A stretch of DNA of 32,413 nucleotides, from NCBI GenBank assembly GCA_900472785.1, contig UCJH01000087.1, positions 1 to 32,413 of the forward strand, read 5' to 3'. The first letter of the stretch is position 1, and each line of letters opens with the position of its first letter. Source of the stretch: Hyphomicrobiales bacterium. Its GTDB lineage: Bacteria; Pseudomonadota; Alphaproteobacteria; Rhizobiales; Rhizobiaceae. Positions 14,776 to 26,512 of this stretch are shown in pieces. Both the position numbers and the translations under genes were made by a program. The notes beneath the pieces are model-generated. The model was given only the letters and a program-made list of their open reading frames with translations, searched no databases and was not told the origin of the DNA.

Positions 14776-15759
14776 ATGCCCCGGCCGAGACGCCGCTTCG
14801 TCTGGGAACTAGACTGGAACCTGCTGCGCACCTTCACGGTCATCGTCAAGGAGAAAAGCCTGACGGCCGCTGGCGAAAAACTGTCGCTGAAGCAGCCGAC
14901 CATCAGCAATGCCCTGCGACGCCTGGAGGACCAGATGGGCTGCCGGCTCATCGAGCGGACCTCCAGCCATTTTCAGGTGACGGCGGCGGGGACGCGGCTC
15001 TATACGGAATGCGCCCGCATGCTCGATATCGTCTCCGCCTTGCCCGACCTTGTCGACGAGACTGACGAAGACATATCCGGCCCCATCGAAATGGCTTTTG
15101 CAAGCCACATCGAGTGCCCTTTTCTCGATCGCTTTCTGGCCGATTTTCAAGCGGAGCATCCCGATATCAGCTATGCCACGACGGTGATGCCGAGCCGGCA
15201 GGCGGCAGCGTCGGTGCTGGCGCAGGAGGTCAGCCTCGCCATCTGCCTTGCGCATGAACACCATCCCGAACTCGACCATGCGATCCTGTACCGCGAGCAT
15301 TTCGGCTATTTCTGCGCGCCGGGACACCCCTTGTTCGGCCAGACAAACCTGACGCTCGAGGCGTTGCGCCGGCTCGACTATGTGACGTTCAAGACAGACC
15401 AGATGACCGACGCACTCAGCCCCGTCGCAAACCTGCGGCAACAGGCCGGCTTCGAAGGCCGGCTGCTGGGAACCTCGTCCAGCCTGGAGGAAGTGAAGCG
15501 GCTGATCAAGATCGGCTCGGGCTTCGGCCCGCTGCCGATCCATGTCGTGGCGGACGAGATTGCCGCCAAGCAGCTCTGGCAGCTGCCGCCCTATGACAAT
15601 CAGCCGGTTGTCGACGTGTACATTATATCCAGACCGGATGCCCGGCGCAGCAAGGCGGAACGGGTGTTTCTGCAGCATCTGCTTGCCGCCATCGATACGG
15701 TGCCGCTCAGTGAGCGCACCTATCCGCAGACCCTCGCCCCAGCCGAAAATGCGGCCTGA
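14776..15759 (+). CDS. LysR-family transcriptional regulator
   Basis: A 327-residue LysR regulator. The winged HTH is at about residues 15-75 (LLRTFTVIVKEKSLTAAGEK, then KQPTISNALRRLEDQMGCRL), followed by a two-lobed effector domain beginning near SGPIEMAFASHIE. The end contains a short Pro/Glu tail. A basic N-terminal extension (MPRPRRRFVWELD) precedes the HTH. The ATG has GAGG 6 nt upstream. It converges on the five-gene minus-strand operon with only 3 bp between stop codons, so it may control that operon, but the operon promoter is 5.5 kb away and the effector is unknown. Confidence 0.88.
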   Translation: MPRPRRRFVWELDWNLLRTFTVIVKEKSLTAAGEKLSLKQPTISNALRRLEDQMGCRLIERTSSHFQVTAAGTRLYTECARMLDIVSALPDLVDETDEDISGPIEMAFASHIECPFLDRFLADFQAEHPDISYATTVMPSRQAAASVLAQEVSLAICLAHEHHPELDHAILYREHFGYFCAPGHPLFGQTNLTLEALRRLDYVTFKTDQMTDALSPVANLRQQAGFEGRLLGTSSSLEEVKRLIKIGSGFGPLPIHVVADEIAAKQLWQLPPYDNQPVVDVYIISRPDARRSKAERVFLQHLLAAIDTVPLSERTYPQTLAPAENAA

Positions 15760-15762
15760 TCG

Positions 15763-16791
15763 TTAGCGACCGGCATTGGTAAAACCGGTGAGGAACGAGG
15801 TGAGGTTGTCGGAAAGCGCATCGCAAAGGTAACCGCCTTCCTGGACGATGACGCTCGGCAAGCCGAGTGTGGCGATTGCCTGTGCAATTTTCGCAAAGCC
15901 CGGCGTCGAAACCGATAGTCCACCAAACGGATCGTGCTCGTAGGCATCCAGACCAAGCGCCACCACCAAGGCATCCGGCGCATAGGCCTCGATCCGGCGC
16001 AAGGCAACAGACAAGGCCTGCAGAAAACCCTCATCGCCAGTCTTGCGCGGCAGCGGAAGGTTATGGTTGTAGCCAAGGCCCAACCCCTCGCCGCGCTCGT
16101 CGGCATGGCCCCAGAAGAACGGATAGAAGCGTACCGGATCGGCATGCAGAGAAACCGTCAGGACATCGCCGCGACCGTAGAAGATCCCCTGCGTGCCATT
16201 GCCGTGGTGCAGGTCGACATCGAGGATAGCCACGCGCCTGCCGCCTTTCAGCAGATGCTGTGCGGCGATCGCGGAATTGTTCAGAAAGCAGAAACCGCCG
16301 GCGACATCGGCAAAGGCATGGTGCCCCGGCGGGCGGCAAAGCGCATAAGCGGAACGGTCGCCGGCGAGAACGGCATCTGCCGCCTCGATCGCGCTCCACG
16401 CGCTCCAGCAGGCGCTGATCCAGGTATCTGCGGAAATCGGGCAGGCCGTATCGGCCATGTGGTAGCCCGCCTGCCCGACCGCGGAGGCGGGATAGCTGCC
16501 GCTGCGGGCGAGCGGATGAATGTTGGGAATGACCTCTTCCGACGCGCCCTCGATCCTCTGCCAGCGCAGGAATATGTTCTGCAGGAATTCCAGATACTCC
16601 GGCGTATGCACGGCCGCGATGGGTTTCAGCCCGTGATTGCGCGGCCGGTGAATTTCCGAACCGGCGGCCTTCGCCCCCGCCAGCAGCCGCTCGATTCGTT
16701 CCGGTTTTTCCGGATTTGGCTGCGGCGCGCCGCTCGACAGGAACATCTTCGGATCATGCGTCTTCTGCTCGTCGGCATAGAAGGTCTTCAC
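15763..16791 (-). CDS. Acetylpolyamine amidohydrolase / HDAC-family deacetylase
   Basis: A 342-residue zinc deacetylase of the bacterial HDAC/acetylpolyamine amidohydrolase (APAH) family. From the chosen start the residues are: general-base pair His157/His158 in RPPGHHAF, zinc ligands Asp193 and His195 in LDVDLHHGNG, third ligand Asp282 in GLDAYEHDPFGG, and transition-state Tyr321 in EGGY. All catalytic residues are present. I use GTG 16791 because family proteins begin MKTFY-like there; GTG 16809 adds six residues and lies 6 bp after the GNAT stop. It is the last gene of the operon with the GNAT, BKACE, aminotransferase and DMFase-like genes. APAH enzymes remove acetyl groups from acetylputrescine, acetylcadaverine or similar amines; the substrate here is not known. 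Confidence 0.9.
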   Translation of the reverse strand: MKTFYADEQKTHDPKMFLSSGAPQPNPEKPERIERLLAGAKAAGSEIHRPRNHGLKPIAAVHTPEYLEFLQNIFLRWQRIEGASEEVIPNIHPLARSGSYPASAVGQAGYHMADTACPISADTWISACWSAWSAIEAADAVLAGDRSAYALCRPPGHHAFADVAGGFCFLNNSAIAAQHLLKGGRRVAILDVDLHHGNGTQGIFYGRGDVLTVSLHADPVRFYPFFWGHADERGEGLGLGYNHNLPLPRKTGDEGFLQALSVALRRIEAYAPDALVVALGLDAYEHDPFGGLSVSTPGFAKIAQAIATLGLPSVIVQEGGYLCDALSDNLTSFLTGFTNAGR

Positions 16792-16815
16792 AGGCTTTGC
16801 CTTTCGCACATCATC

Positions 16816-17319
16816 TCAGACACCACTCTCATGCTGGCCGGCCAGCGCCTCGAAGGCATCGCCATGGACGGCGTGGATATGCTCGTCCTTTGACCATTGA
16901 AGCCCCATGCGTTCGTAGAAATGCTGCGCCGACACATTCTTCGCATCGACGGACAGACGCAGATAGGCACCGCCGTTTTCCCGCACATGGGCAGCTGTTG
17001 CCCGAAGCAGGGCGACGCCGATGCCGGCACCGCGGAAGTCTTCGCCGACCACGATATCCTGAATATAGGCGCCTGGCCGGCCGCGCCATGTCGAGAAACT
17101 CGGAAAGAACAGCGACATGCCCGCGAACGACCCGCCAACCTCGGCGATCAGCACCATGAAGGCGGGTCGGTCCCCGAAGCCATGGCGGCGGATATCGGCA
17201 GGCGTCGCCGTGACCTTTTCTTCCTCGCCGACATGGCGGGCGATCATCATAAGCCCGGAATGGATGATGTCGGCGTCGCCGGCTTCGGCCAACCGGATGC
17301 GCAGGGGAGCGTCTACCAT
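16816..17319 (-). CDS. GNAT-family N-acetyltransferase
   Basis: A 167-residue GCN5-related acetyltransferase. The acetyl-CoA loop is IVVGEDFRGAGIGVALLRA (about 90-108, RGAGIG pyrophosphate motif), and the C-terminal motif B region NVSAQHFYERMGLQ (about 127-140) completes the fold. It likely acetylates a small amine. The ATG at 17319 overlaps the BKACE stop by 1 nt (TGATG), and the downstream deacetylase follows within a few bp. Having an acetyltransferase beside a deacetylase suggests that the operon handles an amine that is acetylated and deacetylated; this is inference. Confidence 0.88.
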   Translation of the reverse strand: MVDAPLRIRLAEAGDADIIHSGLMMIARHVGEEEKVTATPADIRRHGFGDRPAFMVLIAEVGGSFAGMSLFFPSFSTWRGRPGAYIQDIVVGEDFRGAGIGVALLRATAAHVRENGGAYLRLSVDAKNVSAQHFYERMGLQWSKDEHIHAVHGDAFEALAGQHESGV

Positions 17320-18248
17320 CAGAACGCCACCCGATCGCCGCCCTTGAGCGCAAGGATCGTGCGCGCCTCGTCGGGTGTCGCAACCTCCAGCGACAGGTTT
17401 TCAAGGATGGTACGGATGCGCGCCACCTGCTCGGCATTGGACTTCGCCAGTTCGCCGCGGCCGAGATAAAGGCTGTCCTCCAGCCCAACCCGCACATTGC
17501 CTTTCATTGTCGCCCCCATGGTGATCAGCGGCATCTGCTGGCGTCCAGCCGCCAGCACCGAGAAACGATACTGGTCGCCGAACAACTTGTCTGCAATGCG
17601 CTTCATATGCATCAGGTTCTCCGGATCGGCACCGATGCCGCCGAGAATGCCAAGCACGAACTGGATGAACAGCGGCCCTTTGACAAGCCCCCGGTCATGA
17701 AAATGCTTCAGCGTGTAGAGGTGGCCAACATCATAGCATTCGAACTCGAAACGCGTGCCGCAGCCTTCGCCGAGCTGCTGCAGGATGCTTTCGATATCGG
17801 CGAAGGTGTTCTTGAAGATCGTGCCGCGCGTCGCTTCCAGCAGCTTTGGCTCCCATTCGTGCTTCCAGACCATATCGGCCTTGGCGAGCGGGAAGATACC
17901 GAAATTCATCGAGCCCATGTTGAGCGAGCACATTTCCGGCTCGGCCCGCAAGGCTGCGGCCAACCGGTCTTCCAGCGTCATCAGCGAACTTCCACCCGTC
18001 GATATGTTGATGACCGCATCCGTCGCCTGCTTGATGCGGGGCAGGAACTGCATGAATACCGCCGGGTCAGCCGTCGGCCGGCCATCGTCCGGATTGCGTG
18101 CATGCAGATGCAGGATGGAGGCCCCGGCCTCGGCGGCGGCAATCGCCTGTTCCGCAATCTCGTCCGGCGTCACCGGAAGATGCGGGCTCATGGATGGCGT
18201 ATGCACGGAGCCGGTGACCGCGCAGGTGATGATGACCTTGTTTTTCAC
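17319..18248 (-). CDS. BKACE family enzyme (3-keto-5-aminohexanoate cleavage-type)
   Basis: A 309-residue beta-keto acid cleavage enzyme (PF05853, formerly DUF849), a zinc-dependent TIM barrel that condenses a beta-keto acid with acetyl-CoA to give acetoacetate and a CoA ester. Visible landmarks are the N-terminal IITCAVTGSVHTPSMSPHLP, the zinc pair His47/His49 in ILHLHARNPDDGRP, INISTGGS, LGILGGIGADPENL and the C-terminal VRVGLEDSLYLGRGELAKSN. The start is GTG 18248 (GAGGGG upstream), 11 bp after the aminotransferase stop; a longer frame upstream is read-through. BKACE members differ widely in substrate, and the one used here cannot be read from motifs. It shares its stop with the GNAT start. 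Confidence 0.92.
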   Translation of the reverse strand: MKNKVIITCAVTGSVHTPSMSPHLPVTPDEIAEQAIAAAEAGASILHLHARNPDDGRPTADPAVFMQFLPRIKQATDAVINISTGGSSLMTLEDRLAAALRAEPEMCSLNMGSMNFGIFPLAKADMVWKHEWEPKLLEATRGTIFKNTFADIESILQQLGEGCGTRFEFECYDVGHLYTLKHFHDRGLVKGPLFIQFVLGILGGIGADPENLMHMKRIADKLFGDQYRFSVLAAGRQQMPLITMGATMKGNVRVGLEDSLYLGRGELAKSNAEQVARIRTILENLSLEVATPDEARTILALKGGDRVAF

Positions 18249-18259
18249 CGTTTCACCCC

Positions 18260-19615
18260 TCACCCGTTGACCGGCAGATCGAGGTCCCGTGCCAGAACCT
18301 CCAGCGCATCGCCGAGAATGGAGACCATTTCGCCGACTTGCTCGGCGTTGATGATGAGGGGTGGCGCCAGAATGAAATTGTCGGCTTCGATGCCATCGCC
18401 CCGGATGCGCCGCGAATAAATGATCAGGCCGCGTTCGTAGCAGAGATCGACGAGCCGCTGGTTGGTGCCCTTGGACTTGGGCAGAGATTCGAAAGTGACG
18501 GGATTGGCGACCAGATCGGCGCCGAGCAGCAGACCCTTGCCGCGCACCCCGGCGATGAACGGAAACCGCTTCGAAAGCCGTTCCATTTCGCCTTTCAGCA
18601 AATCGCCCATGGCCGTCGCATTGCCCTCGCAATCCAGCCGTTCCATTTCTTCCATCACCGCCAGACCGGCCGCGCAGGCGAGTGGATTGCCGGCATAGGT
18701 ATAGCCGTGCTGGAAGCCACCCATGTCGAGCACCGGCTTCACCAGCCGCGACGAAGCGGCCATGGCCCCAAGCGCTGCATAGCCGGAGCCGATGCCCTTC
18801 GACATCGTGACGATATCAGGCGTGCAATTCCAATGATCGCCGCCGAGATAGCGGCCGGTGCGCGCCGCACCGCTCATCACCTCGTCATGGATGAGAAGGA
18901 TGCCGTATTTGTCGCAGATTTCGCGGATGCGGGCGAAGTAGCTATCCGGCGGAACGAGGGCTGCGGTCGCGGCGCCGCCGATCGGCTCCATAATGAAGGC
19001 GACGACGCTGTCTGCCCCCTCCTCCAGGATTTTTGCCTCCAGCATGTCGGCATAGCGCAGTCCGCGCTCTTCCATCGAAAGATTGTCGCGGTCGCGATAG
19101 GCGCGTGGCGCCGGGATCGCAGGCATCGGCTGGATCTGCGGCGCGAAGGTCTCGGTCAGCGCCAGGTCGCCGGTGACGCCGAGCGCCCCCATCGTGCCGC
19201 CGTGATAGGACGGGAACCGGCAAATGACCTTCCAGCGCTTTGTCTGACCGGTGGCGACCGCCCATTGGCGGGCGAGCTTGATGGCAGATTCAACAGCTTC
19301 GGAACCACCGGAGACGAAGAAGATCCGGTCGAGATCGCCGGGCATCTTGCCCGCCATGCGCCGCGCCAGTTCCTCGGCCGGTTCGTTTTCGAAATGCAGG
19401 CGGTAGGCAAACGTGGTCTTTTCCATCTGCCGCTTCATCGCCTCGATCACATGTCGGTTGCCGTGGCCGATATTGCTGACCATCGGGCCGCTCGACCCGT
19501 CGATGAAACGCCTTCCGTCGGCTGTCCAGAAGTAGATGCCCTCGGCGCGATCGACCAGAGGGCGACGCAGGCGCGTTACATAGAAGAGATGGGAGGCCGG
19601 ACGATCGATGCTCAT
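18260..19615 (-). CDS. Class III PLP-dependent aminotransferase
   Basis: A 451-residue aminotransferase of fold type I, class III (omega-amino acid / beta-alanine:pyruvate / acetylornithine group). Landmarks: SGGSEAVESAIKLAR (102-116), YHGGTMGALG (137-146), LIHDEVMSGAARTG (241-254, with Asp244 contacting the PLP pyridine N) and the Schiff-base Lys273 in TMSKGIGSGY. These enzymes move an amino group from an omega- or beta-amino acid, or a diamine, to pyruvate or 2-oxoglutarate. It starts 19 bp after the DMFase-like stop and ends 11 bp before BKACE. A plausible role is to turn a beta-amino acid into the beta-keto acid that BKACE cleaves. Confidence 0.92.
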   Translation of the reverse strand: MSIDRPASHLFYVTRLRRPLVDRAEGIYFWTADGRRFIDGSSGPMVSNIGHGNRHVIEAMKRQMEKTTFAYRLHFENEPAEELARRMAGKMPGDLDRIFFVSGGSEAVESAIKLARQWAVATGQTKRWKVICRFPSYHGGTMGALGVTGDLALTETFAPQIQPMPAIPAPRAYRDRDNLSMEERGLRYADMLEAKILEEGADSVVAFIMEPIGGAATAALVPPDSYFARIREICDKYGILLIHDEVMSGAARTGRYLGGDHWNCTPDIVTMSKGIGSGYAALGAMAASSRLVKPVLDMGGFQHGYTYAGNPLACAAGLAVMEEMERLDCEGNATAMGDLLKGEMERLSKRFPFIAGVRGKGLLLGADLVANPVTFESLPKSKGTNQRLVDLCYERGLIIYSRRIRGDGIEADNFILAPPLIINAEQVGEMVSILGDALEVLARDLDLPVNG

Positions 19616-19634
19616 GAAATTTTCTCTGTCGGAT

Positions 19635-21272
19635 TTATCGGTTGAGATAACGGTTCAGGACGTTGGCAGTGACGCGTTCGACCATGGCGTCGTTGCGCAA
19701 AAGCCCTGCCACCCATTCGCAGGTACCGGCGTGGAAGACCTCTCCCCCACCGCGCCTGAAATTGACGATCATGCCGTTGCTGTAGCGAACCTTTTCCATG
19801 TTCTCGTCGCTGGCCTCGCCATAAAGCGTCTCGGCGATGAAGCGGCCATCTTCGTCGCCGAAGAACTGGTCTTCCGGTGACAGGATATCGCTTTCCTCCA
19901 CCTGGCTCGCCATGCCCAACGCCAGGATTTCCAGACCTTCGGGCGCGCCGCTATCGGCCGCGGGATAAGGCAGGCCGTGGCGGATCTCGTAGGAAAGGCC
20001 ATCGACCTCATAGCCATAGATGTGGCTGTCGGCACCGAGCACGTCGCCATAGAACAGGCCGGTTCCGGCGAAAGCCCAATGGCCGGGACGATAGATGGGG
20101 AACCCCTTGACGCCGCGCGGCGCACAGCCGCCCCAGCCGGCATAGACGCCGTTGGTGGCATTCAGCCCAAAGGTCAGCGCGCCGGGCCTGCCGATTTCCG
20201 GCGCTTCCCAGGAGTTTGTGGCGCGCGTCACGTCGCCGTTTGTATAGAAAGGATCTTGCCTGCGGGCGACATATTTGTAGCAGACCTGTCGCTGGCCCTC
20301 GTCCTCCAGCCGCGTCTGCCACATGAAATTGCCGGCAAAGCGCGCAACGCGGCCGCCCTTGTCGACATAGGCATCGATCGCGTCGCGCATCTCCCAGGTC
20401 CAGTATTCGTCGTGACCGACGCAAACGACACAATCATAGCCGTCGAGCAGTTCGGGGCGGAAATGCAGCTCGTCCTGCGAGATCAGGTCGATTCCGTAGC
20501 CCCGCCGTTCGGCCCAGCGGAAGAAATGACTGTCGTAGCTCGCCCAGCCGGACGAGGCGTATTTCTTGGAATAGCCATTGGCATAGGCCCATTCCATATG
20601 CGGATAGCGCGGGATCGTGCCGGGCGGCAGGCTCACAGTCAGTGGCACGCGCGGGGCCTCCGGCGGCAGGACCACGAAGCCGCGGCACCAGGGGCGCTCG
20701 CGGCTGACAGTGGTTGCAAACTGATCGCGGTTCGGCCCGGTGATGCCCTGATAATGATTGGAGCCGCCCCAGGTGTTGTAGGCAGCCCAGGTTCCGGTCG
20801 CCGCCACCTGCAGGATGCGGCCCGGTTTCGGCCCGGCATTCGGAAGGACGATGATCAGATGATGGCAGCGGATCGGCTTGCCGTCACGGCCATCGGCTGT
20901 CAGCGTGATGCGATAGGCGCCGGACGGCCAGCTTTCATGGATTTGGAACGTGAAGGACGGCTCCCAGCCGCAGCCCAGTACGGAGCACTGCTCCGGCGTC
21001 TCCTGCCAGACCGTCGCAATGCCATCAGTGCCGTAGACGCTCGTCTCGACACCCCCGTCCCGGACGATTTCCATCCGGCAGGAGGAGGCCGTTGAGCTGA
21101 TATGAAGATCCACCGTCGCGCCGCGCGCATAGGCAAAGGCGCGCGTATAGCACCAGATCTCGCCGCGCGCACCGTCCATGCCCGGCGTCTCGTAATAATG
21201 CCCGCGCACGGCATGGCGCCGCTCCTCGACGCTCAGCCCGAAATCGGGAAACGGATCGGTCGCTTCTGCCAC
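19635..21272 (-). CDS. N,N-dimethylformamidase large-subunit-like protein
   Basis: A 545-residue protein resembling the beta (large) subunit of N,N-dimethylformamidase, a mononuclear-iron amidohydrolase using two Tyr and one carboxylate. Recognisable stretches are GTWAAYNTWGGSNHY, a core with YDCVVCVGHDEYWTWEMRDA and the GGRVARFAGNFMWQTRLE segment, which look like a glutamine-amidotransferase-like fold. It is shorter than the roughly 760-residue Paracoccus subunit, and no small-subunit gene is adjacent, so the natural substrate may not be dimethylformamide. I could not place the iron ligands with certainty. No signal peptide is seen. The start is GTG 21272 with GAGGAC 6 nt upstream. It heads the five-gene operon, 131 bp after bioZ. 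Confidence 0.82.
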   Translation of the reverse strand: MAEATDPFPDFGLSVEERRHAVRGHYYETPGMDGARGEIWCYTRAFAYARGATVDLHISSTASSCRMEIVRDGGVETSVYGTDGIATVWQETPEQCSVLGCGWEPSFTFQIHESWPSGAYRITLTADGRDGKPIRCHHLIIVLPNAGPKPGRILQVAATGTWAAYNTWGGSNHYQGITGPNRDQFATTVSRERPWCRGFVVLPPEAPRVPLTVSLPPGTIPRYPHMEWAYANGYSKKYASSGWASYDSHFFRWAERRGYGIDLISQDELHFRPELLDGYDCVVCVGHDEYWTWEMRDAIDAYVDKGGRVARFAGNFMWQTRLEDEGQRQVCYKYVARRQDPFYTNGDVTRATNSWEAPEIGRPGALTFGLNATNGVYAGWGGCAPRGVKGFPIYRPGHWAFAGTGLFYGDVLGADSHIYGYEVDGLSYEIRHGLPYPAADSGAPEGLEILALGMASQVEESDILSPEDQFFGDEDGRFIAETLYGEASDENMEKVRYSNGMIVNFRRGGGEVFHAGTCEWVAGLLRNDAMVERVTANVLNRYLNR

Positions 21273-21403: not shown

Positions 21404-22387
21404 TCAGACAACCATGACGCAGGCGCCGCCTGTCAACCCCGCGCCTGCCGCCGTCAGCAGCAGTTTTTCGCCCACCGCGAAAGGCCGCTGGCGATGGGCG
21501 AGCGACAGGGACAACGGAATGGTCGCAGCCGACGAATTGCCGTAATCCTCGATGGTTCGCACAGCCCGTTGCGGATCGATCCGCAAGCCGACACAGACCG
21601 CATCGGAAATCCGGCCATTGGCCTGGTGCGGCACGAAACGGTCGATTTCCCCGGCGTCCGCACCGGCCCGGGCAAGCGCGCGGCCGGCGCAATCCGTCAT
21701 CATCTGAACAGCCTGGCTGAACATCTCCCGGCCATCCAGCATCGTCATCAGGCATTCCGCGGCTGCCACGTTCGGGCCGAAGGGACGGCTGCTGCCGCCG
21801 GCCGCAATCGATATCAGATCGTAGTGGCCCCCATCGGAAGCGAGATCCGTTCCGATTACGCCCTGCCCCGGATTGTCAGAGGGGACAAGGACAACGGCGC
21901 CCGCCGCATCGGCAAAGAGAACCGCGGTGCCGCGCTCCACCGGATTGATGCGCCGGCTGAGGATGTTGGCCGCAACCACCAGCACCGGCCGGCCCTGAGC
22001 TCGAACGAAGCCGTCGGCGAGCGTCAGCGCGTAGAGAAATCCCGAACAGGCCCCAGCAAGGTCGATCGCTCCGGAATTTGGCAGTCCAAGCTTGTGCGCG
22101 AGCAGCGGACCGGACGGCGGCAGCAGATGATCCGGCGTCGAGGTGGCCAGCAGCGTCAGAGCAATCTCACCGCGCCCGACGCCCGCATCATCAAGCGCCA
22201 TCGCCCCGGCTTCGGCGGCAAGACCGGTCAGCGTATCGCCATCCGCCGCCCATCGTCGCGACCGGATGCCGGTTCGGCGCTCGATCCATCCGGGCTCGAG
22301 ATCGAGCTGCCGTTCGATCTCGTCATTCCCGACGCAGCGATCCGGCACCGCATGCCCAAAACCGGCGATCCGGCTGGAACAGCTCAC
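21404..22387 (-). CDS. bioZ: BioZ, KAS III-like enzyme of pimeloyl-moiety synthesis
   Basis: A 327-residue beta-ketoacyl-ACP synthase III homologue. The thiolase-fold catalytic triad is complete: Cys114 in [13 protein letters not shown], His254 in VPHQANGR and Asn284 in [11 protein letters not shown]. In Agrobacterium and relatives BioZ joins glutaryl-CoA with malonyl-ACP, an alternative to BioC/BioH; no bioC or bioH is visible here. The start is GTG 22387, which overlaps the bioA stop in GTGA by 4 nt and fits the family length; the frame is open for 18 more codons inside bioA. It is the last gene of bioBFDAZ. Identification as BioZ rather than FabH rests on the operon. Confidence 0.93.
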
Positions 22388-23664
22388 AACGAACCCACTG
22401 CGGCAAGCGCGGCCGCCTCTTCGATTGCGGAATAGACACAATCCAGTTCCTCGGCTGTCACGCAGTAGGGCGGCATCAGATAGATGACATTACCCAGCGG
22501 CCGGATCAGCAGATTGCGTTTCCGGAAGAAGGCGCGTAGGCGTGGGCCGATTTCGGCAAGATAGCCCCCTGCCGGAACATCCAAGTCGAGCGCGACGATC
22601 GTGCCGGTGCGGCGGGCGTCGGCGAAATGACGATTGTTCCGAAACGGCGCCAGCCGTTCCTCCTGCATCGCCGACAGCGCATTGATGCGTTCGGCGACCG
22701 GTTCGTTCTTCCAGACCTCGAGATTGGCAAGGGCTGCGGCGCAGGCGATCGGGTTGGCCGTGTAGGAGCTGGAATGGAAGAAGGTCCGGCGCCGGTCCGT
22801 GGAAAGATGCGCATCGAAGATCGCGGCGGTGCAGAGGGTCGCCGCGAGCGGCAAGGCGCCGCCGGTCAGGCCCTTCGAGGTACAGAGGATATCGGGCACG
22901 ATCCCGGCCTGCTCGCAGGCAAACATGGTTCCGGTCCGGCCCCAGCCGGTCATGACTTCGTCTGCGATCAAAAGGCTCTGGTGACGTTCCGCGATCCGCT
23001 TCAGCTCGGCGAGAACCGTAGCGGGATACATCTTCATGCCGCCGGCACCGAGAACCAGCGGCTCGACCAAAAGTGCAGCAACCTGGCCCGTAGCGCAGAA
23101 GGTTTCGAAGGCACCGAGCGTATCCTGCTCGTGGCCGGGTGTTGGAAACGGCAGGCGATCGACGCCGAAGAGAAGCGGCTCATAGGCCGCATTGAAGGCA
23201 CCGCGCTCTCCCGTCGACATGGTCCCGATCGTGTCGCCATGATAGCCGTGCTCCATGACCACGACACGGCGGCGGGGCGCGCCGGAATTGTGGAAGAAGC
23301 CCAGCGCCATCTTTAGCGCCACCTCGACGCAGGTCGAACCGCTGTCGGAATAGAACACATGCGCAAGGCCGGTCGGCGCGATATCGATCAGGCCTGCTGC
23401 CAGCGCCTCGGCCGGCTCGTGGGTATATTCGGCGAAAATGATCTGGTCATAGGCTTCGGAAGAGTCGCGGATGGCCTGCATGATCGCCGGATGGCGGTGA
23501 CCGTGGGTGATGACCCACCAGGACGAAATCGCGTCGAGAATGCGGTTGCCCTGCGCATCGACCAGATAGGCGCCCTCGGTGCGGACGATGCGCTTCATCA
23601 CCGGCTCGAGCGCATGCTGGGTGAATGGATGCCAGACCGGCGAGTGGGACGTTGCGGGGCTCAA
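22384..23664 (-). CDS. bioA: Adenosylmethionine-8-amino-7-oxononanoate aminotransferase
   Basis: A 426-residue class III PLP aminotransferase that converts 8-amino-7-oxononanoate (KAPA) to 7,8-diaminononanoate (DAPA) using S-adenosylmethionine as amino donor. Landmarks: WHPFTQH (11-17), [13 protein letters not shown] (47-59) with the aromatic pair of the active site, [29 protein letters not shown] and the PLP Lys264 in [17 protein letters not shown]. The length matches E. coli BioA (429). Both ends overlap neighbours by 4 nt: ATGA with bioD upstream and GTGA with bioZ downstream. Confidence 0.96.
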
Positions 23665-24299
23665 GGCTTTGCCTCCTGAAAGCGGGCAAGTTCGAAGTAA
23701 CTGGAGAAAGCCTGGCGAAGGGTCTCCGGCGTCAGCGGATCGAGCCGCGGCAGGCGACCCAGAACCGGCGCTCCGCCCATTGTCGCGATGATCGCCTGGG
23801 TTTCCGCCTGCTCGTCGCCGATGAAGGCGATCCCGAAGACCGGTATCGCCCGGCGATGCAGAGCCTCGAGCGACAGCAGCGTGTGATTGATCGTCCCAAG
23901 CCCCGTGCGGGCACAGAGAATGACGGGGATCTGCCAGCGGGTGAAGACGTCGGCAAACAAAACATGATCCGTCAGCGGCACGAGCAGGCCGCCCGCTCCT
24001 TCGATCACCAAAGGTCCATCGATTGCAGGGGGCAGCAAAGTCTCCGGTCGGATCATCACGCCGTCGAGGCGCGCGGCAAGATGCGGCGATACCGGTGTCT
24101 TCAGGCGGTAGGCCTCCGGCAGGACGTGGCTGGCCGGAAGTGCGGCAAGCCGGCGAACGGTCTCACTGTCGGTCTCCTCTTCCAGCCCGGACTGCACCGG
24201 TTTCCAGTAATGCGCTTCCAGCGCACCCGCGAGCCCGGCGGCAAATACGGTCTTGCCGATGCCGGTATCGGTGCCCGTGACGACGAAACGCGGCATCAT
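23661..24299 (-). CDS. bioD: Dethiobiotin synthetase
   Basis: A 212-residue ATP-dependent carboxylase that closes the ureido ring of dethiobiotin from DAPA and CO2. The P-loop [15 protein letters not shown] (about 8-22), the substrate KPVQSG motif, [12 protein letters not shown] and the [14 protein letters not shown] stretch are all typical of BioD. Length is close to E. coli (225). The start is ATGATG at 24299; the first ATG overlaps the bioF stop by 4 nt (ATGA). The upstream frame runs further but is inside bioF. Its stop overlaps the bioA start. Confidence 0.95.
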
Positions 24300-25441
24300 T
24301 CCGGCACCTCGGCCATCACATTGGCCAGTTCCGCAAACATGGCCCTTATCAGTGGCTTGTCGACATTCAGCGTGATGGCGATCCTTAGCCGTGCGGTTCC
24401 TTCCGGCACGGTCGGCGGGCGGATGGCGCGGATATCGAAGCCTGCGGTGCGCATGCGTTCGGCGATGCGCACGGCGCGACCGTTGTCGCCGATCATCACC
24501 GGCAATATCTGCGAGCCACTGCTGTCGCAACCAAGCGCCTCTGAAAGTTCCGCATTGGCAAAGACACGCAAAGCCGCGAAATCCCGGTGCCGGGCGGGCT
24601 CATCGACCAGCATGCGGAGCGCCTCCCGCACCGCGACCGCCATCAGCGGCGATGGCGCCGTCGCATAGATGAAACTGCGTGCCCGGTTGACCAGATAGTC
24701 GCAAAGCACCGAGCTTCCGCCCACCAGCGCACCCGATGCGCCGAGCGCCTTGCCGCAGGTATGCAACACGACGATGTTCGGCCGCGCTTCCAGATCGGCC
24801 GCCAGACCCCGGCCGTCCGGTCCGAAAACCCCGGTCGCATGCGCCTCGTCCACGATGAGGAAACCGTCATGCCGGTTGGCCAGATCAGCGAGCGCTTCAA
24901 GCGGCGCGCGGTCTCCATCCATGGAATAGAGGCTTTCGACCGCGATCCACGGATGCCCGGCTCCACCATTGCGCCGCCAATCGAGGATCGCCGCCTCGAA
25001 GGCTTCGACATCATTGTGAGCAGCGGAAACGGCCGGCGCTCGGCTTGCCTGAATGCCATCATGCACACTCGCATGAACAAGGGCGTCATGAACAATGAGG
25101 TCGCCACGCTGCGGCAGGGTCGAAAACAGAGCCATGTTGGCGGTGTAGCCGCTGCCGAAATAAAGTGCGCGCTCCGCACCGAAGAATGCGGCGGCTTCCT
25201 TTTCCAGCGCCGCATGTTCCGGATGGTTGCCACGCAGCAGGCGCGAACCGCCTGCGCCGACGGGCACACCGCGCGCAAGCGCCGCCGAGACCGCAGCCCG
25301 GATGCGGGACGCTCCGGCCAAGGCCAGATAGTCGTTCGAGGTGAAATCCGCGCCGGCCTGCGGCATCAAGCTGCGCAGCCTGCCCTTGCGCTCCAGACCG
25401 GACAGTGATTTCGCGTAGCGCTGAAGCGCCTCTGCGCTCAT
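24296..25441 (-). CDS. bioF: 8-amino-7-oxononanoate synthase
   Basis: A 381-residue PLP-dependent alpha-oxoamine synthase that condenses pimeloyl-ACP (or -CoA) with L-alanine to KAPA. Landmarks: [11 protein letters not shown] near the start, [19 protein letters not shown] (about 62-80), [20 protein letters not shown], and [16 protein letters not shown] carrying the PLP lysine. Length is near E. coli BioF (384). The ATG at 25441 overlaps the bioB stop by 4 nt. Residues about 300-340 carry the [16 protein letters not shown] segment typical of the C-terminal domain. No truncation or frameshift is seen. Confidence 0.96.
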
Positions 25442-26439
25442 TCGGCCGCACCCAGTTGCATCGGCTTCAGCCCGAGACGGCCGAACAGGGCGGCATCCTT
25501 GTCTTCGCCCGGATTATCGGCCGTCAGAAGCGTCTCGCCGACGAAGATCGAGTTTGCGCCGGCGAAAAAACAGAGCGCCTGCATCTCGTCGCTCATGTCG
25601 GTACGCCCCGCGGAGAGACGGACATGCGACCGGGGCATCAGGATGCGCGCCAAAGCGATGGTGCGGATGAAATCGATCGGATCGACCGCCGGCGCGTCGG
25701 CCAGTTTCGAGCCCGGAATCGGGATCAGCATGTTGATCGGCACGCTTTCCGGCGGCACCGGCAGGTTCGCCAGCGTCAGCAGCATGGCGATCCGGTCCTC
25801 GGTGGTCTCTCCCAGCCCAAGAATACCGCCAGCGCAGACCTTCATGCCCGCATCACGGACATTGGCCAACGTCTCCAGCCGGTCGGCGAATGTCCGCGTC
25901 GTGATGATTTCGCCGTAGAAGCGCTCCGATGTATCGACATTGTGATTGTAGTAATCGAGGCCGGCCTCGGCGAGAGCGGCACTTTGCGCCAGCGTCAGCA
26001 TGCCGAGCGTCATGCAGGTTTCCATGCCAAGCGACCGGACGCCGCGCACCATGGCCAGAACCGCCTCCATGTCGCGATCCTTGGGGCTGCGCCATGCCGC
26101 GCCCATGCAGTAACGGGTCGCACCGCCTGCCTTCGCCTTGCGCGCTTCCTCGATAACCCGCTCGACCTCCATCAGCTTGGAAGCCTTCAAACCGGTTGGC
26201 GCGTGGGCGGACTGGCTGCAATAGCCGCAATCCTCCGCACAACCGCCGGTCTTGATCGAGAGCAGCCGGCTCATCTGCACCGCATTGGGATCGAAATTTG
26301 CCCGATGAACAGAGTGCGCACGAAACAACAGATCGTTGAAGGGAAGATTATAGATTTTTTCTGCCTCCTCAACCATCCAGGCTGCACCAGTTGCACAGAA
26401 GGTGTCGGAATCGGCAGTTTCATTGATTTCGGTCAGCAT
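25438..26439 (-). CDS. bioB: Biotin synthase
   Basis: A 333-residue radical SAM enzyme that inserts sulfur into dethiobiotin. The radical SAM CxxxCxxC cluster motif is Cys67, Cys71 and Cys74 ([15 protein letters not shown]), and the sacrificial [2Fe-2S] ligands are the Cys in [21 protein letters not shown] and [12 protein letters not shown] with the Arg of RLSAGR. The ATG at 26439 has GAGGG upstream and is the first gene of bioBFDAZ. A pair of BioR boxes lies 45-75 bp upstream of its start. Length is close to E. coli BioB (346). It couples to bioF by a 4-nt overlap. Confidence 0.97.
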
Positions 26440-26482
26440 TTATTCCCTCAAAGCTCCCAAACGGGTGACTGTTCCGCATCAT

Positions 26483-26512
26483 ATTATAGATATAAATTCA
26501 TATTATCTATAA
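26483..26512 (-). promoter_or_regulatory. Two BioR boxes and -10 of the bio operon
   Basis: TTATCTATAA (26503-26512) is a perfect BioR box, and TTATAGATAT (26484-26493) matches 9 of 10 bases of its inverted form. They are 19 bp apart start to start and make a palindrome with 9-bp arms. On the minus strand a perfect -10 TATAAT (plus-strand ATTATA, 26483-26488) overlaps the bioB-proximal box; no good -35 is visible. Bound BioR would block the bioBFDAZ promoter. Confidence 0.85.

What the first reader, a model, noticed from the sequence alone, without database searches (positions are those of the whole stretch)
15763..21272. Compact five-gene operon joining a DMFase-like amidase, class III aminotransferase, BKACE, GNAT and an acetylpolyamine-type deacetylase
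The five genes lie on one strand with gaps of 19 and 11 bp, a 1-nt overlap and a few bp, so they are almost certainly cotranscribed. The chemistry can be ordered. An amide hydrolase and a deacetylase free an amino group, the aminotransferase turns a beta- or omega-amino acid into an oxo acid, and BKACE cleaves a beta-keto acid with acetyl-CoA to acetoacetate and a CoA ester; GNAT could protect or activate the amine. I know of no described pathway with this set. The families and catalytic residues are seen; the pathway and substrate are inference.
Basis: partly seen in the sequence, partly recalled or inferred. Interest (0 to 1): 0.8.

Follow-up and report, generated by a model that had tools for sequence, protein, structure and literature searches.

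The report
Predicted beta-amino acid breakdown operon
Five adjacent genes in a soil bacterium look like an undescribed assembly line that takes apart an acylated beta-amino acid; related bacteria keep the central steps while swapping the transporters and acyl-removing enzymes around them, but the actual food molecule is still unknown.

Summary
Of the 80 best related loci, 53 carry all five in the same order. The conserved core is a class III aminotransferase (AT3) followed by BKACE. Of 385 surveyed genomes of the class, 20 carry this AT3 (56% identity or more, window included). BKACE is the next gene in 16; a 3-oxoacid CoA-transferase lies there or one gene further in 3; one has neither. That swap suggests that AT3 makes a 3-oxo (beta-keto) acid, so its substrate is a beta-amino acid. 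The front end varies: amino-acid ABC importer and DMFase-like hydrolase (nearest solved relative: N-acetyl-(R)-beta-phenylalanine acylase), or Pot-like importer, HDAC and FAD oxidoreductase, or GNAT plus M20 deacylase. A 4HBT thioesterase adjoins the LysR gene in 19 of 80 loci.

Best reading: catabolism of an N-acylated beta-amino acid, probably with a second amine that is acetylated and later deacetylated. Against strict linearity: 5 loci lack AT3 and 20 of 78 lack BKACE. Substrate unknown. New variant of the BKACE-pathway kind; lysine fermentation is the nearest known logic.

The parts
19635..21272 (-). DMFase-beta-like amide hydrolase (DMFA2_C), predicted N-acyl-beta-amino acid deacylase; Y165, H287, E289 align with DMFase Y399, H519, E521
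   Evidence: PF20254 221.7 bits; nearest solved sequences N-acetyl-(R)-beta-phenylalanine acylase 8i5a/8huy and DMFase 6lvb; DMFase iron ligands from PMC7686228, passages
18260..19615 (-). class III (PLP) aminotransferase AT3, predicted beta-amino acid transaminase; PLP lysine K273 (assignment recalled)
   Evidence: PF00202 297.7 bits; none of the 25 NCBIfam models shown (of 69) reached its cut-off; AT3-BKACE pairing; tree
17319..18248 (-). BKACE, beta-keto acid cleavage enzyme of the 310-aa type; H47, H49, E257 (zinc motif, assignment recalled), E170 base and R253
   Evidence: PF05853 371.5 bits; NF053538 535 bits against cut-off 430 (both run without the first two residues); residue comparison with BKACE15
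16816..17319 (-). GNAT acetyltransferase, nearest solved relatives diamine acetyltransferase 2, thialysine and ornithine acetyltransferases
   Evidence: PF00583 58.1 bits; 2bei 58.8 bits
15763..16809 (-). HDAC-fold amidohydrolase of the acetylpolyamine amidohydrolase type (start perhaps 16791)
   Evidence: PF00850 253.4 bits; 3men acetylpolyamine aminohydrolase 326 bits; HH, DxDxHH, D and Y motifs present (their roles recalled)
14776..15759 (+). LysR regulator, convergent with the cluster; relatives sit next to the same kind of cluster in other genomes
   Evidence: PF03466/PF00126; a LysR relative within 6.5 kb of the hydrolase start in 30 of 80 loci; relatives of 42-50% beside L102-L105, the 10 Pot-type loci and L174, L176

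Best explanation
This is a catabolic operon for an N-acylated beta-amino acid, built around an aminotransferase-BKACE core. Proposed order: (1) the DMFase-like enzyme hydrolyses the amide and frees the beta-amino acid; (2) AT3 transaminates the beta-amine, giving a 3-oxo acid; (3) BKACE transfers the acetyl end of the 3-oxo acid to acetyl-CoA, giving acetoacetate and a shortened acyl-CoA; (4) a thioesterase (4HBT, beside the LysR gene in some relatives, not found in this genome) or a general enzyme releases the acid, and acetoacetate goes to acetyl-CoA; (5) GNAT acetylates, and the HDAC-type enzyme deacetylates, a second amine of the substrate. Protecting that amine would keep the amino-3-oxo acid from cyclising and present an uncharged substrate to BKACE. 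Shown by comparison: operon conservation, AT3-BKACE pairing, occurrence of 3-oxoacid CoA-transferase in its place, conserved catalytic residues. Inferred: every substrate, the order of steps 1 and 5, and the protecting-group role.
For: Five genes in the same order in 53 of 80 loci; 16 of 80 have an amino-acid-type importer directly upstream (families read in L053: SBP_bac_3, two permeases, ATPase 338.6 bits to EhuA, cut-off 345.4). Four further surveyed genomes have importer-DMF-AT3-BKACE without GNAT/HDAC beside them. Of 20 surveyed genomes with this AT3, BKACE is the next gene in 16, and a 3-oxoacid CoA-transferase A+B follows in 3 (directly in L172, after GNAT in L174 and L176). Of 6 genomes in the neighbouring 50-52% AT group I fetched 5; none has either nearby. 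BKACEs of these loci separate from 8 other-context paralogues (52/95 support; 96% of bootstrap trees). F229 is in 29 of 29 of them, W in the 8 paralogues and BKACE15; E170, R253 and E257 are invariant. BKACE15 takes uncharged 3-oxo acids (PMC11961710, passages). Nearest solved relative of the hydrolase: an N-acyl-beta-amino acid acylase. A 4HBT gene adjoins LysR in 19 of 80 loci (family confirmed for three copies). M20 deacylases occur in L164-L166, L174, L176, L178.
Against: 20 of 78 loci with downstream sequence lack BKACE in the cluster and 5 lack AT3; the five AT3-less genomes have no class III AT above 37% identity to this one. All 18 genomes of the DMF-AT3-GNAT(-HDAC) kind have a 60-64% BKACE elsewhere, one of them partial, but so have 17 of 22 genomes whose cluster contains BKACE, so compensation is only weakly indicated (Fisher 0.04 one-sided, 0.05 two-sided, kinship not corrected). 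In L172, L174 and L176 BKACE is absent from the fetched stretch only; the rest of those genomes was not searched for it. This genome has no close copy of the ABC binding protein (best 35-36%) or of the 4HBT thioesterase (no match at E 1e-8). No substrate, activity or phenotype is known. The DMF-like protein is remote from DMFase and acylase (36-45 bits); its third iron ligand could not be placed and its structure model is poor (pLDDT 59).
Confidence: 0.6

Rival explanations
1. Acetylated polyamine or diamine catabolism: GNAT and the APAH-type enzyme add and remove acetyl groups on polyamines, AT3 is an omega-amine transaminase, and the aminopropyl part ends as beta-alanine and malonate semialdehyde.
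For: Deacetylase nearest to acetylpolyamine amidohydrolases; GNAT nearest to diamine acetyltransferase 2 and thialysine acetyltransferases; in 10 loci AT3 sits with a Pot-like importer and HDAC, in 9 of the 10 also a DAO-family FAD oxidoreductase and in 4 of the 10 RidA within 1.5 kb. The importer label rests on L121 (ATPase close to, but below, every cut-off shown, e.g. PotA family 351.9 against 355.6) and on SBP_bac_8 proteins in L167 and L169 with weak PotD similarity for L169.
Against: Polyamine breakdown as generally known (recalled) needs no 3-oxo acid enzyme, yet BKACE or 3-oxoacid CoA-transferase lies beside AT3 in 19 of 20 surveyed genomes; the importer with the DMF version is an amino acid type; the DMF-like hydrolase is unexplained.
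Confidence: 0.15
2. Beta-alanine release: the hydrolases free beta-alanine from N-acyl-beta-alanine type compounds, AT3 makes malonate semialdehyde and BKACE converts it to formyl-CoA and acetoacetate.
For: BKACE15, a near relative with studied function, does this reaction in vitro (PMC11961710, passages); class III enzymes include beta-alanine transaminases (e.g. 4b98).
Against: The authors call the malonate semialdehyde reaction new-to-nature; malonate semialdehyde is normally handled by a dehydrogenase (recalled); GNAT and the second deacylase stay unexplained; the F197/F229 pattern suggests another substrate than that of BKACE15.
Confidence: 0.1
3. AT3 acts after BKACE on a 3-aminoacyl-CoA, as Kat does in the lysine fermentation variant.
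For: Kat is a class III aminotransferase that acts on the CoA ester made by Kce (PMC3149608, passages).
Against: A 3-oxoacid CoA-transferase can stand in the place of BKACE, which fits a free 3-oxo acid made by AT3; the residue where Kce has Glu14 (CsTAL Trp16) appears to be V15 here (position by motif, inference), so no amine-binding acid there.
Confidence: 0.08
4. Five enzymes with partly unrelated roles held together by descent and shared regulation, for example detoxification of mixed amines.
For: AT3, BKACE, GNAT and HDAC are each absent from some loci.
Against: The same AT3-BKACE core recurs with at least three different front ends and often the same LysR type across several families of the class.
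Confidence: 0.07

Closest known systems
Lysine fermentation Kce, with Kat in a variant (PMC3149608, passages read)
   Same: The nearest known logic: the beta-amine of an amino acid (3,5-diaminohexanoate) is replaced by a keto group and a BKACE-family enzyme cleaves the 3-oxo acid; the variant also has a class III aminotransferase
   Different: There a dehydrogenase makes the 3-oxo acid and Kat acts after Kce on a CoA ester; aminomutases upstream; this BKACE misses the Kce model's cut-off; no acyl-group enzymes there
Oxidative deoxyribonate catabolism (SDR dehydrogenase + BKACE; PMC6365646, passages read)
   Same: A 3-oxo acid is made and cleaved by BKACE with acetyl-CoA to an acyl-CoA and acetoacetate; in Klebsiella a CoA-bound route is proposed instead of BKACE, parallel to the CoA-transferase here
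   Different: There the 3-oxo acid comes from a hydroxy acid through a dehydrogenase; here it would come from a beta-amino acid through an aminotransferase, with acyl-group enzymes added
Carnitine catabolism (carnitine dehydrogenase, BKACE-family cleavage enzyme, thioesterase; recalled)
   Same: Dehydrogenase or aminotransferase, BKACE and thioesterase logic; BKACE paralogues beside carnitine-dehydrogenase-like genes seen in L124, L125
   Different: Charged substrate, so another BKACE group; no aminotransferase, GNAT or deacetylase
Phloroglucinol degradation triacetate:acetoacetate-lyase (PMC10470551, passages read)
   Same: BKACE of this window passes the NCBIfam model NF053538 named for 3,5-dioxohexanoate
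   Different: No reductase or cyclohydrolase gene named among the neighbours that were annotated here; the model probably covers a broad uncharged-substrate group (inference)
N-acetyl-(R)-beta-phenylalanine acylase (8huy, 8i5a) and N,N-dimethylformamidase (6lvb; PMC7686228, passages read)
   Same: Nearest solved relatives of the first enzyme; H and E of the iron site and one Tyr align
   Different: About 770-residue proteins against 545 here; 36-54 bits only

Membership tests
BKACE (PF05853) | Family profile above cut-off | tested here: met
   371.5 bits against 24.8
BKACE (PF05853) | Catalytic Glu (E171 of BKACE15) and Arg (R254), zinc Glu | tested here: met
   E170, R253, E257, invariant in 29 of 29 linked BKACEs; HLH zinc motif present
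BKACE (PF05853) | Cleaves a 3-oxo acid with acetyl-CoA | not testable with these tools
   needs enzyme assay
DMFase-type amidohydrolase (PF20254) | Family profile above cut-off | tested here: met
   221.7 bits against 27
DMFase-type amidohydrolase (PF20254) | 2-Tyr-1-carboxylate iron site plus His (Y399, Y440, E521, H519) | tested here: inconclusive
   Y165, E289 and H287 align with Y399, E521 and H519; partner of Y440 not located
N,N-dimethylformamidase proper | Enzyme of large and small subunits | not tested
   no small-subunit gene among the five; the rest of the genome was not searched for one
Acetylpolyamine amidohydrolase (HDAC fold) | HDAC zinc and catalytic motifs and closest sequence match to APAH | tested here: met
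   PF00850; best solved hits 3men, 9gkz, 3q9b; motifs
Acetylpolyamine amidohydrolase (HDAC fold) | Deacetylates acetylpolyamines | not testable with these tools
   needs assay
Kce (lysine fermentation BKACE) | NF052387 above cut-off; Glu14 contact to the 5-amino group | tested here: not met
   NF052387 248.8 against cut-off 382; V15 at the apparent position of Glu14 (position by motif, inference)
3,5-dioxohexanoate:acetyl-CoA enzyme (NF053538) | Model above cut-off | tested here: met
   535.2 against 430
3,5-dioxohexanoate:acetyl-CoA enzyme (NF053538) | Phloroglucinol pathway genes alongside | tested here: inconclusive
   the five genes are not of that pathway, and none was named among the neighbours annotated; not every neighbour was annotated
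Ectoine/hydroxyectoine uptake system (Ehu) | EhuA model above cut-off for the ATPase of a relative (L053) | tested here: not met
   338.6 against 345.4, just below

The most novel reading that the evidence does not exclude
A widespread alphaproteobacterial pathway for diamino beta-amino acids of the beta-lysine or beta-ornithine type (including the compatible solute N-epsilon-acetyl-beta-lysine), in which an acetyl group on the distal amine is used as a protecting group during transamination and beta-keto acid cleavage and is then removed, giving for beta-lysine 4-acetamidobutanoyl-CoA, acetoacetate and finally 4-aminobutanoate. The core AT3-BKACE is reused with different importers and deacylases for acylated relatives.
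Probability: 0.22. Interest if true: 0.8.

Novelty: new variant of a known kind. Interest (0 to 1): 0.6.

Why it matters
Many BKACE enzymes have no known natural substrate (for BKACE15 the authors say so). A conserved, transporter-linked operon in which the 3-oxo acid would come from a beta-amino acid gives a specific substrate class to test, an assay order and several genomes to test it in. Beta-amino acids occur in osmolytes and antibiotics. Apart from lysine fermentation, where a dehydrogenase removes the beta-amine before Kce, I found no described bacterial route that takes a beta-amino acid through BKACE, and none with an aminotransferase feeding BKACE. That rests on listings of 10 searches of an open-access library, 9 of them on this question; the key BKACE paper (Bastard 2014) is not held.

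Tried and rejected
Ectoine catabolism: considered because of the EhuA-like ATPase and an M24 peptidase beside 4 loci (L013, L014, L031, L033); the ATPase misses the EhuA cut-off and the L014 M24 protein hits only NF011174 in NCBIfam at the threshold used, 58.6 bits against a cut-off of 487. Biotin link: BKACE making glutaryl-CoA for BioZ was considered because bioZ is next door; the neighbourhood is shared only with L003 among 80 loci, so it is local. The transporter of L004 (SBP_bac_1, with a Cys/Met PLP enzyme and GntR) looks like a separate operon, as do the TRAP and glucuronate genes beside L018. Compensation for lost BKACE: 18 of 18 against 17 of 22, Fisher 0.04 one-sided, 0.05 two-sided, uncorrected for kinship: weak. 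Structure model of the DMF-like protein: pLDDT 59, so only the identity of the top Foldseek hits is used. Distant DMF relatives (32-54% identity) in 11 further regions (L106-L116) show no BKACE or HDAC relative nearby and no close AT3 (42% at 4.5 kb in L106, 28% in L116), so the DMF family as a whole is not tied to this pathway. Literature searches listed no paper on the operon.
Full report
Observation. The five ORFs and their spacing are as described. Each gene hits the named Pfam family far above its cut-off. BKACE starts at GTG 18248 (searches were run from two codons later; one search used the full gene). The deacetylase more likely starts at GTG 16791 than 16809, because the L121 relative begins at that point. 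LysR (14776-15759, plus strand) ends 3 bp from the deacetylase stop; bioZ ends 131 bp upstream of the hydrolase. A simple scan found no terminator-like or promoter-like site between 21200 and 21600, so readthrough from the biotin genes is possible but not shown.

Conservation. With a profile of 19 hydrolase sequences, one scan of the genome collection gave 393 relatives, of which the best 80 were kept; most are Rhizobium/Pararhizobium, Ciceribacter and Mesorhizobium, so they are not independent. One search counts over all 80: 53 have hydrolase-AT3-BKACE-GNAT-HDAC in order (37 plain, 14 with an importer directly upstream, 2 with an M24 peptidase after); 17 have hydrolase-AT3-GNAT-HDAC; 2 hydrolase-AT3-GNAT-M24; 1 hydrolase-AT3-GNAT; 4 hydrolase-BKACE-HDAC (2 with the importer); 1 hydrolase-BKACE-GNAT-HDAC; 2 are cut by the contig end after AT3. 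The importer (16 of 80) was annotated in L053: an SBP_bac_3 protein, two permeases and an ATPase close to EhuA but below its cut-off. A LysR relative lies within 6.5 kb of the hydrolase start in 30 of 80. A 4HBT thioesterase gene adjoins LysR in 19 of 80; the family was confirmed by Pfam for the L053, L017 and L018 copies, the others by similarity.

Wider survey. In 385 genomes of the class, 15 have the hydrolase at E 1e-60 or better (the tool scores only the best few candidates of each genome). Besides the window, four (G057, G162, G033, G260) have LysR divergent from importer-hydrolase-AT3-BKACE, without GNAT or HDAC beside them; G057 has a 71% HDAC elsewhere, beside another ABC importer and RidA. 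The other ten are more distant (32-54% identity) and lack the neighbourhood. The same survey with AT3 gives 20 genomes with a copy of 56% identity or more, window included. I examined all 20 neighbourhoods. BKACE is next to AT3 in 16. In 3 (G194, G222, G117) a 3-oxoacid CoA-transferase A+B pair follows, directly in G194 and after a GNAT gene in G222 and G117. For G222 both subunits pass the NCBIfam cut-offs for pcaI/scoA and pcaJ/scoB, for G194 subunit A was tested and passes, the rest by similarity. BKACE is absent from these three fetched stretches; the rest of the genomes was not searched for it. One genome (G015) has neither. Of the next group of aminotransferases (50-52%, 6 genomes) I fetched 5; none has BKACE or the transferase in the fetched stretch. 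I did not examine the neighbourhoods of the roughly 40% group except G057 C1 (L133), where an AT3 relative overlaps a BKACE of another subgroup, and G327 (L106).

Architectures. (a) hydrolase type with or without amino acid importer; (b) Pot-like importer followed by AT3, BKACE, HDAC and a DAO-family FAD oxidoreductase in L121, L167, L169, L170, L171, L173, L175, L177 and L178 (9 loci), and in L168 without BKACE and DAO hits; RidA lies within 1.5 kb in 4 of these 10 (L168, L169, L177, L178; families). The importer's ATPase in L121 reaches no NCBIfam cut-off shown (PotA family 351.9 against 355.6); its binding protein is SBP_bac_8 in L167 and L169, with weak similarity to PotD for L169. (c) AT3-BKACE-GNAT followed by an M20 ArgE/DapE-family deacylase in L164-L166 (L164 alone of the three scanned against NCBIfam; in L165 an extra ORF lies between BKACE and GNAT). 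(d) AT3-GNAT-CoA-transferase-M20 in L174, L176, and amino acid importer-AT3-CoA-transferase in L172. LysR relatives of 42-50% stand beside L102-L105, all ten loci of (b), and L174 and L176.

Why this points to beta-amino acids. BKACE and 3-oxoacid CoA-transferase share little but the substrate class, 3-oxo acids. That they alternate beside the same aminotransferase clade is the main evidence that AT3 makes a 3-oxo acid. A transaminase that makes a 3-oxo acid acts on a beta-amino acid. A caution: such transferases also activate acetoacetate, a BKACE product, so they could serve downstream of a BKACE encoded elsewhere. Phylogeny: BKACEs of these loci (29 rows) separate from 8 paralogues of other contexts in one step (support 52/95; 96% of 200 bootstrap trees), with long branches elsewhere in the tree and no AU test made. 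AT3 of these loci form a group of 33 against the 50% group (98/86); within it the three Mesorhizobium loci without BKACE that I included nest among those with it, which suggests loss.

Active sites. BKACE: E170, R253 and E257 match BKACE15 E171, R254 and E258 and are invariant in 29 of 29 linked and 8 of 8 other rows; F229 is in 29 of 29 linked rows, W in 8 of 8 others and in BKACE15; F197 is F in 28 and Y in 1, against S, T or M in the others and T in BKACE15. That these two line the pocket is inference. [quoted passage not shown] changing E171 abolishes (Leu) or strongly lowers (Asp) activity (PMC11961710, passages and section 9). BKACE groups by substrate charge are from PMC4922564 (passages). 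DMF-like enzyme: Y165, H287 and E289 align with DMFase Y399, H519 and E521.

Acetyl chemistry. GNAT is nearest to diamine and thialysine acetyltransferases, HDAC to acetylpolyamine amidohydrolases. Both act on distal primary amines in their known relatives (recalled). A free amine three or four carbons from a 3-oxo group would tend to cyclise (established chemistry), and BKACE15 takes uncharged substrates; acetylation would solve both. This is inference. The Pot-type loci have HDAC without a GNAT hit, fitting uptake of an already acetylated compound; the loci of kinds (c) and L174/L176 have GNAT with an M20 deacylase.

Results against. AT3 is missing in 5 of 80 loci, with no close substitute in those genomes (best 35-37%). 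BKACE is missing in 20 of 78. Paralogous BKACEs (60-64%) exist in 18 of 18 of the DMF-AT3-GNAT(-HDAC) genomes, one of them partial, and in 17 of 22 genomes with the cluster BKACE (Fisher). The own genome lacks close copies of the importer binding protein and of the thioesterase.

Verdict. The operon is real and conserved.

Noticed in passing
window 21404-26512: Biotin genes bioB, bioF, bioD, bioA and a KAS III gene in the bioZ position directly upstream on the same strand, with a TTATCTATAA site at 26503-26512 upstream of bioB that fits the BioR box as recalled (1 match, 0.01 expected). KAS III confirmed; the other gene names are by reading of the translations (recalled).
   Followed up: partly
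L133:7249-9463 (G057 C1): A second aminotransferase (40% to AT3) overlapping a BKACE of a different subgroup: the AT-BKACE pairing may have arisen more than once.
   Followed up: no
L121, L167-L171, L173, L175, L177, L178: An operon type for which I found no description: LysR, Pot-like ABC importer, AT3, BKACE, HDAC, DAO-family FAD oxidoreductase, in some RidA (L168 without BKACE and DAO); probably a relative pathway for another substrate.
   Followed up: partly
L124, L125: BKACE paralogues (63-64%) next to L-carnitine-dehydrogenase-like genes that score below that model's cut-off, which suggests other 3-hydroxy acid pathways.
   Followed up: no
L015: A MAG labelled Arenimonas (Gammaproteobacteria) carries a locus like that of Ciceribacter L018 in order (thioesterase 89% identical); transfer or binning contamination.
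   Followed up: no
L014 and L121 (same genome G404): One genome holds both a hydrolase-AT3-GNAT-M24 cluster and a separate importer-AT3-BKACE-HDAC-DAO cluster, so the two are not simple alternatives.
   Followed up: partly
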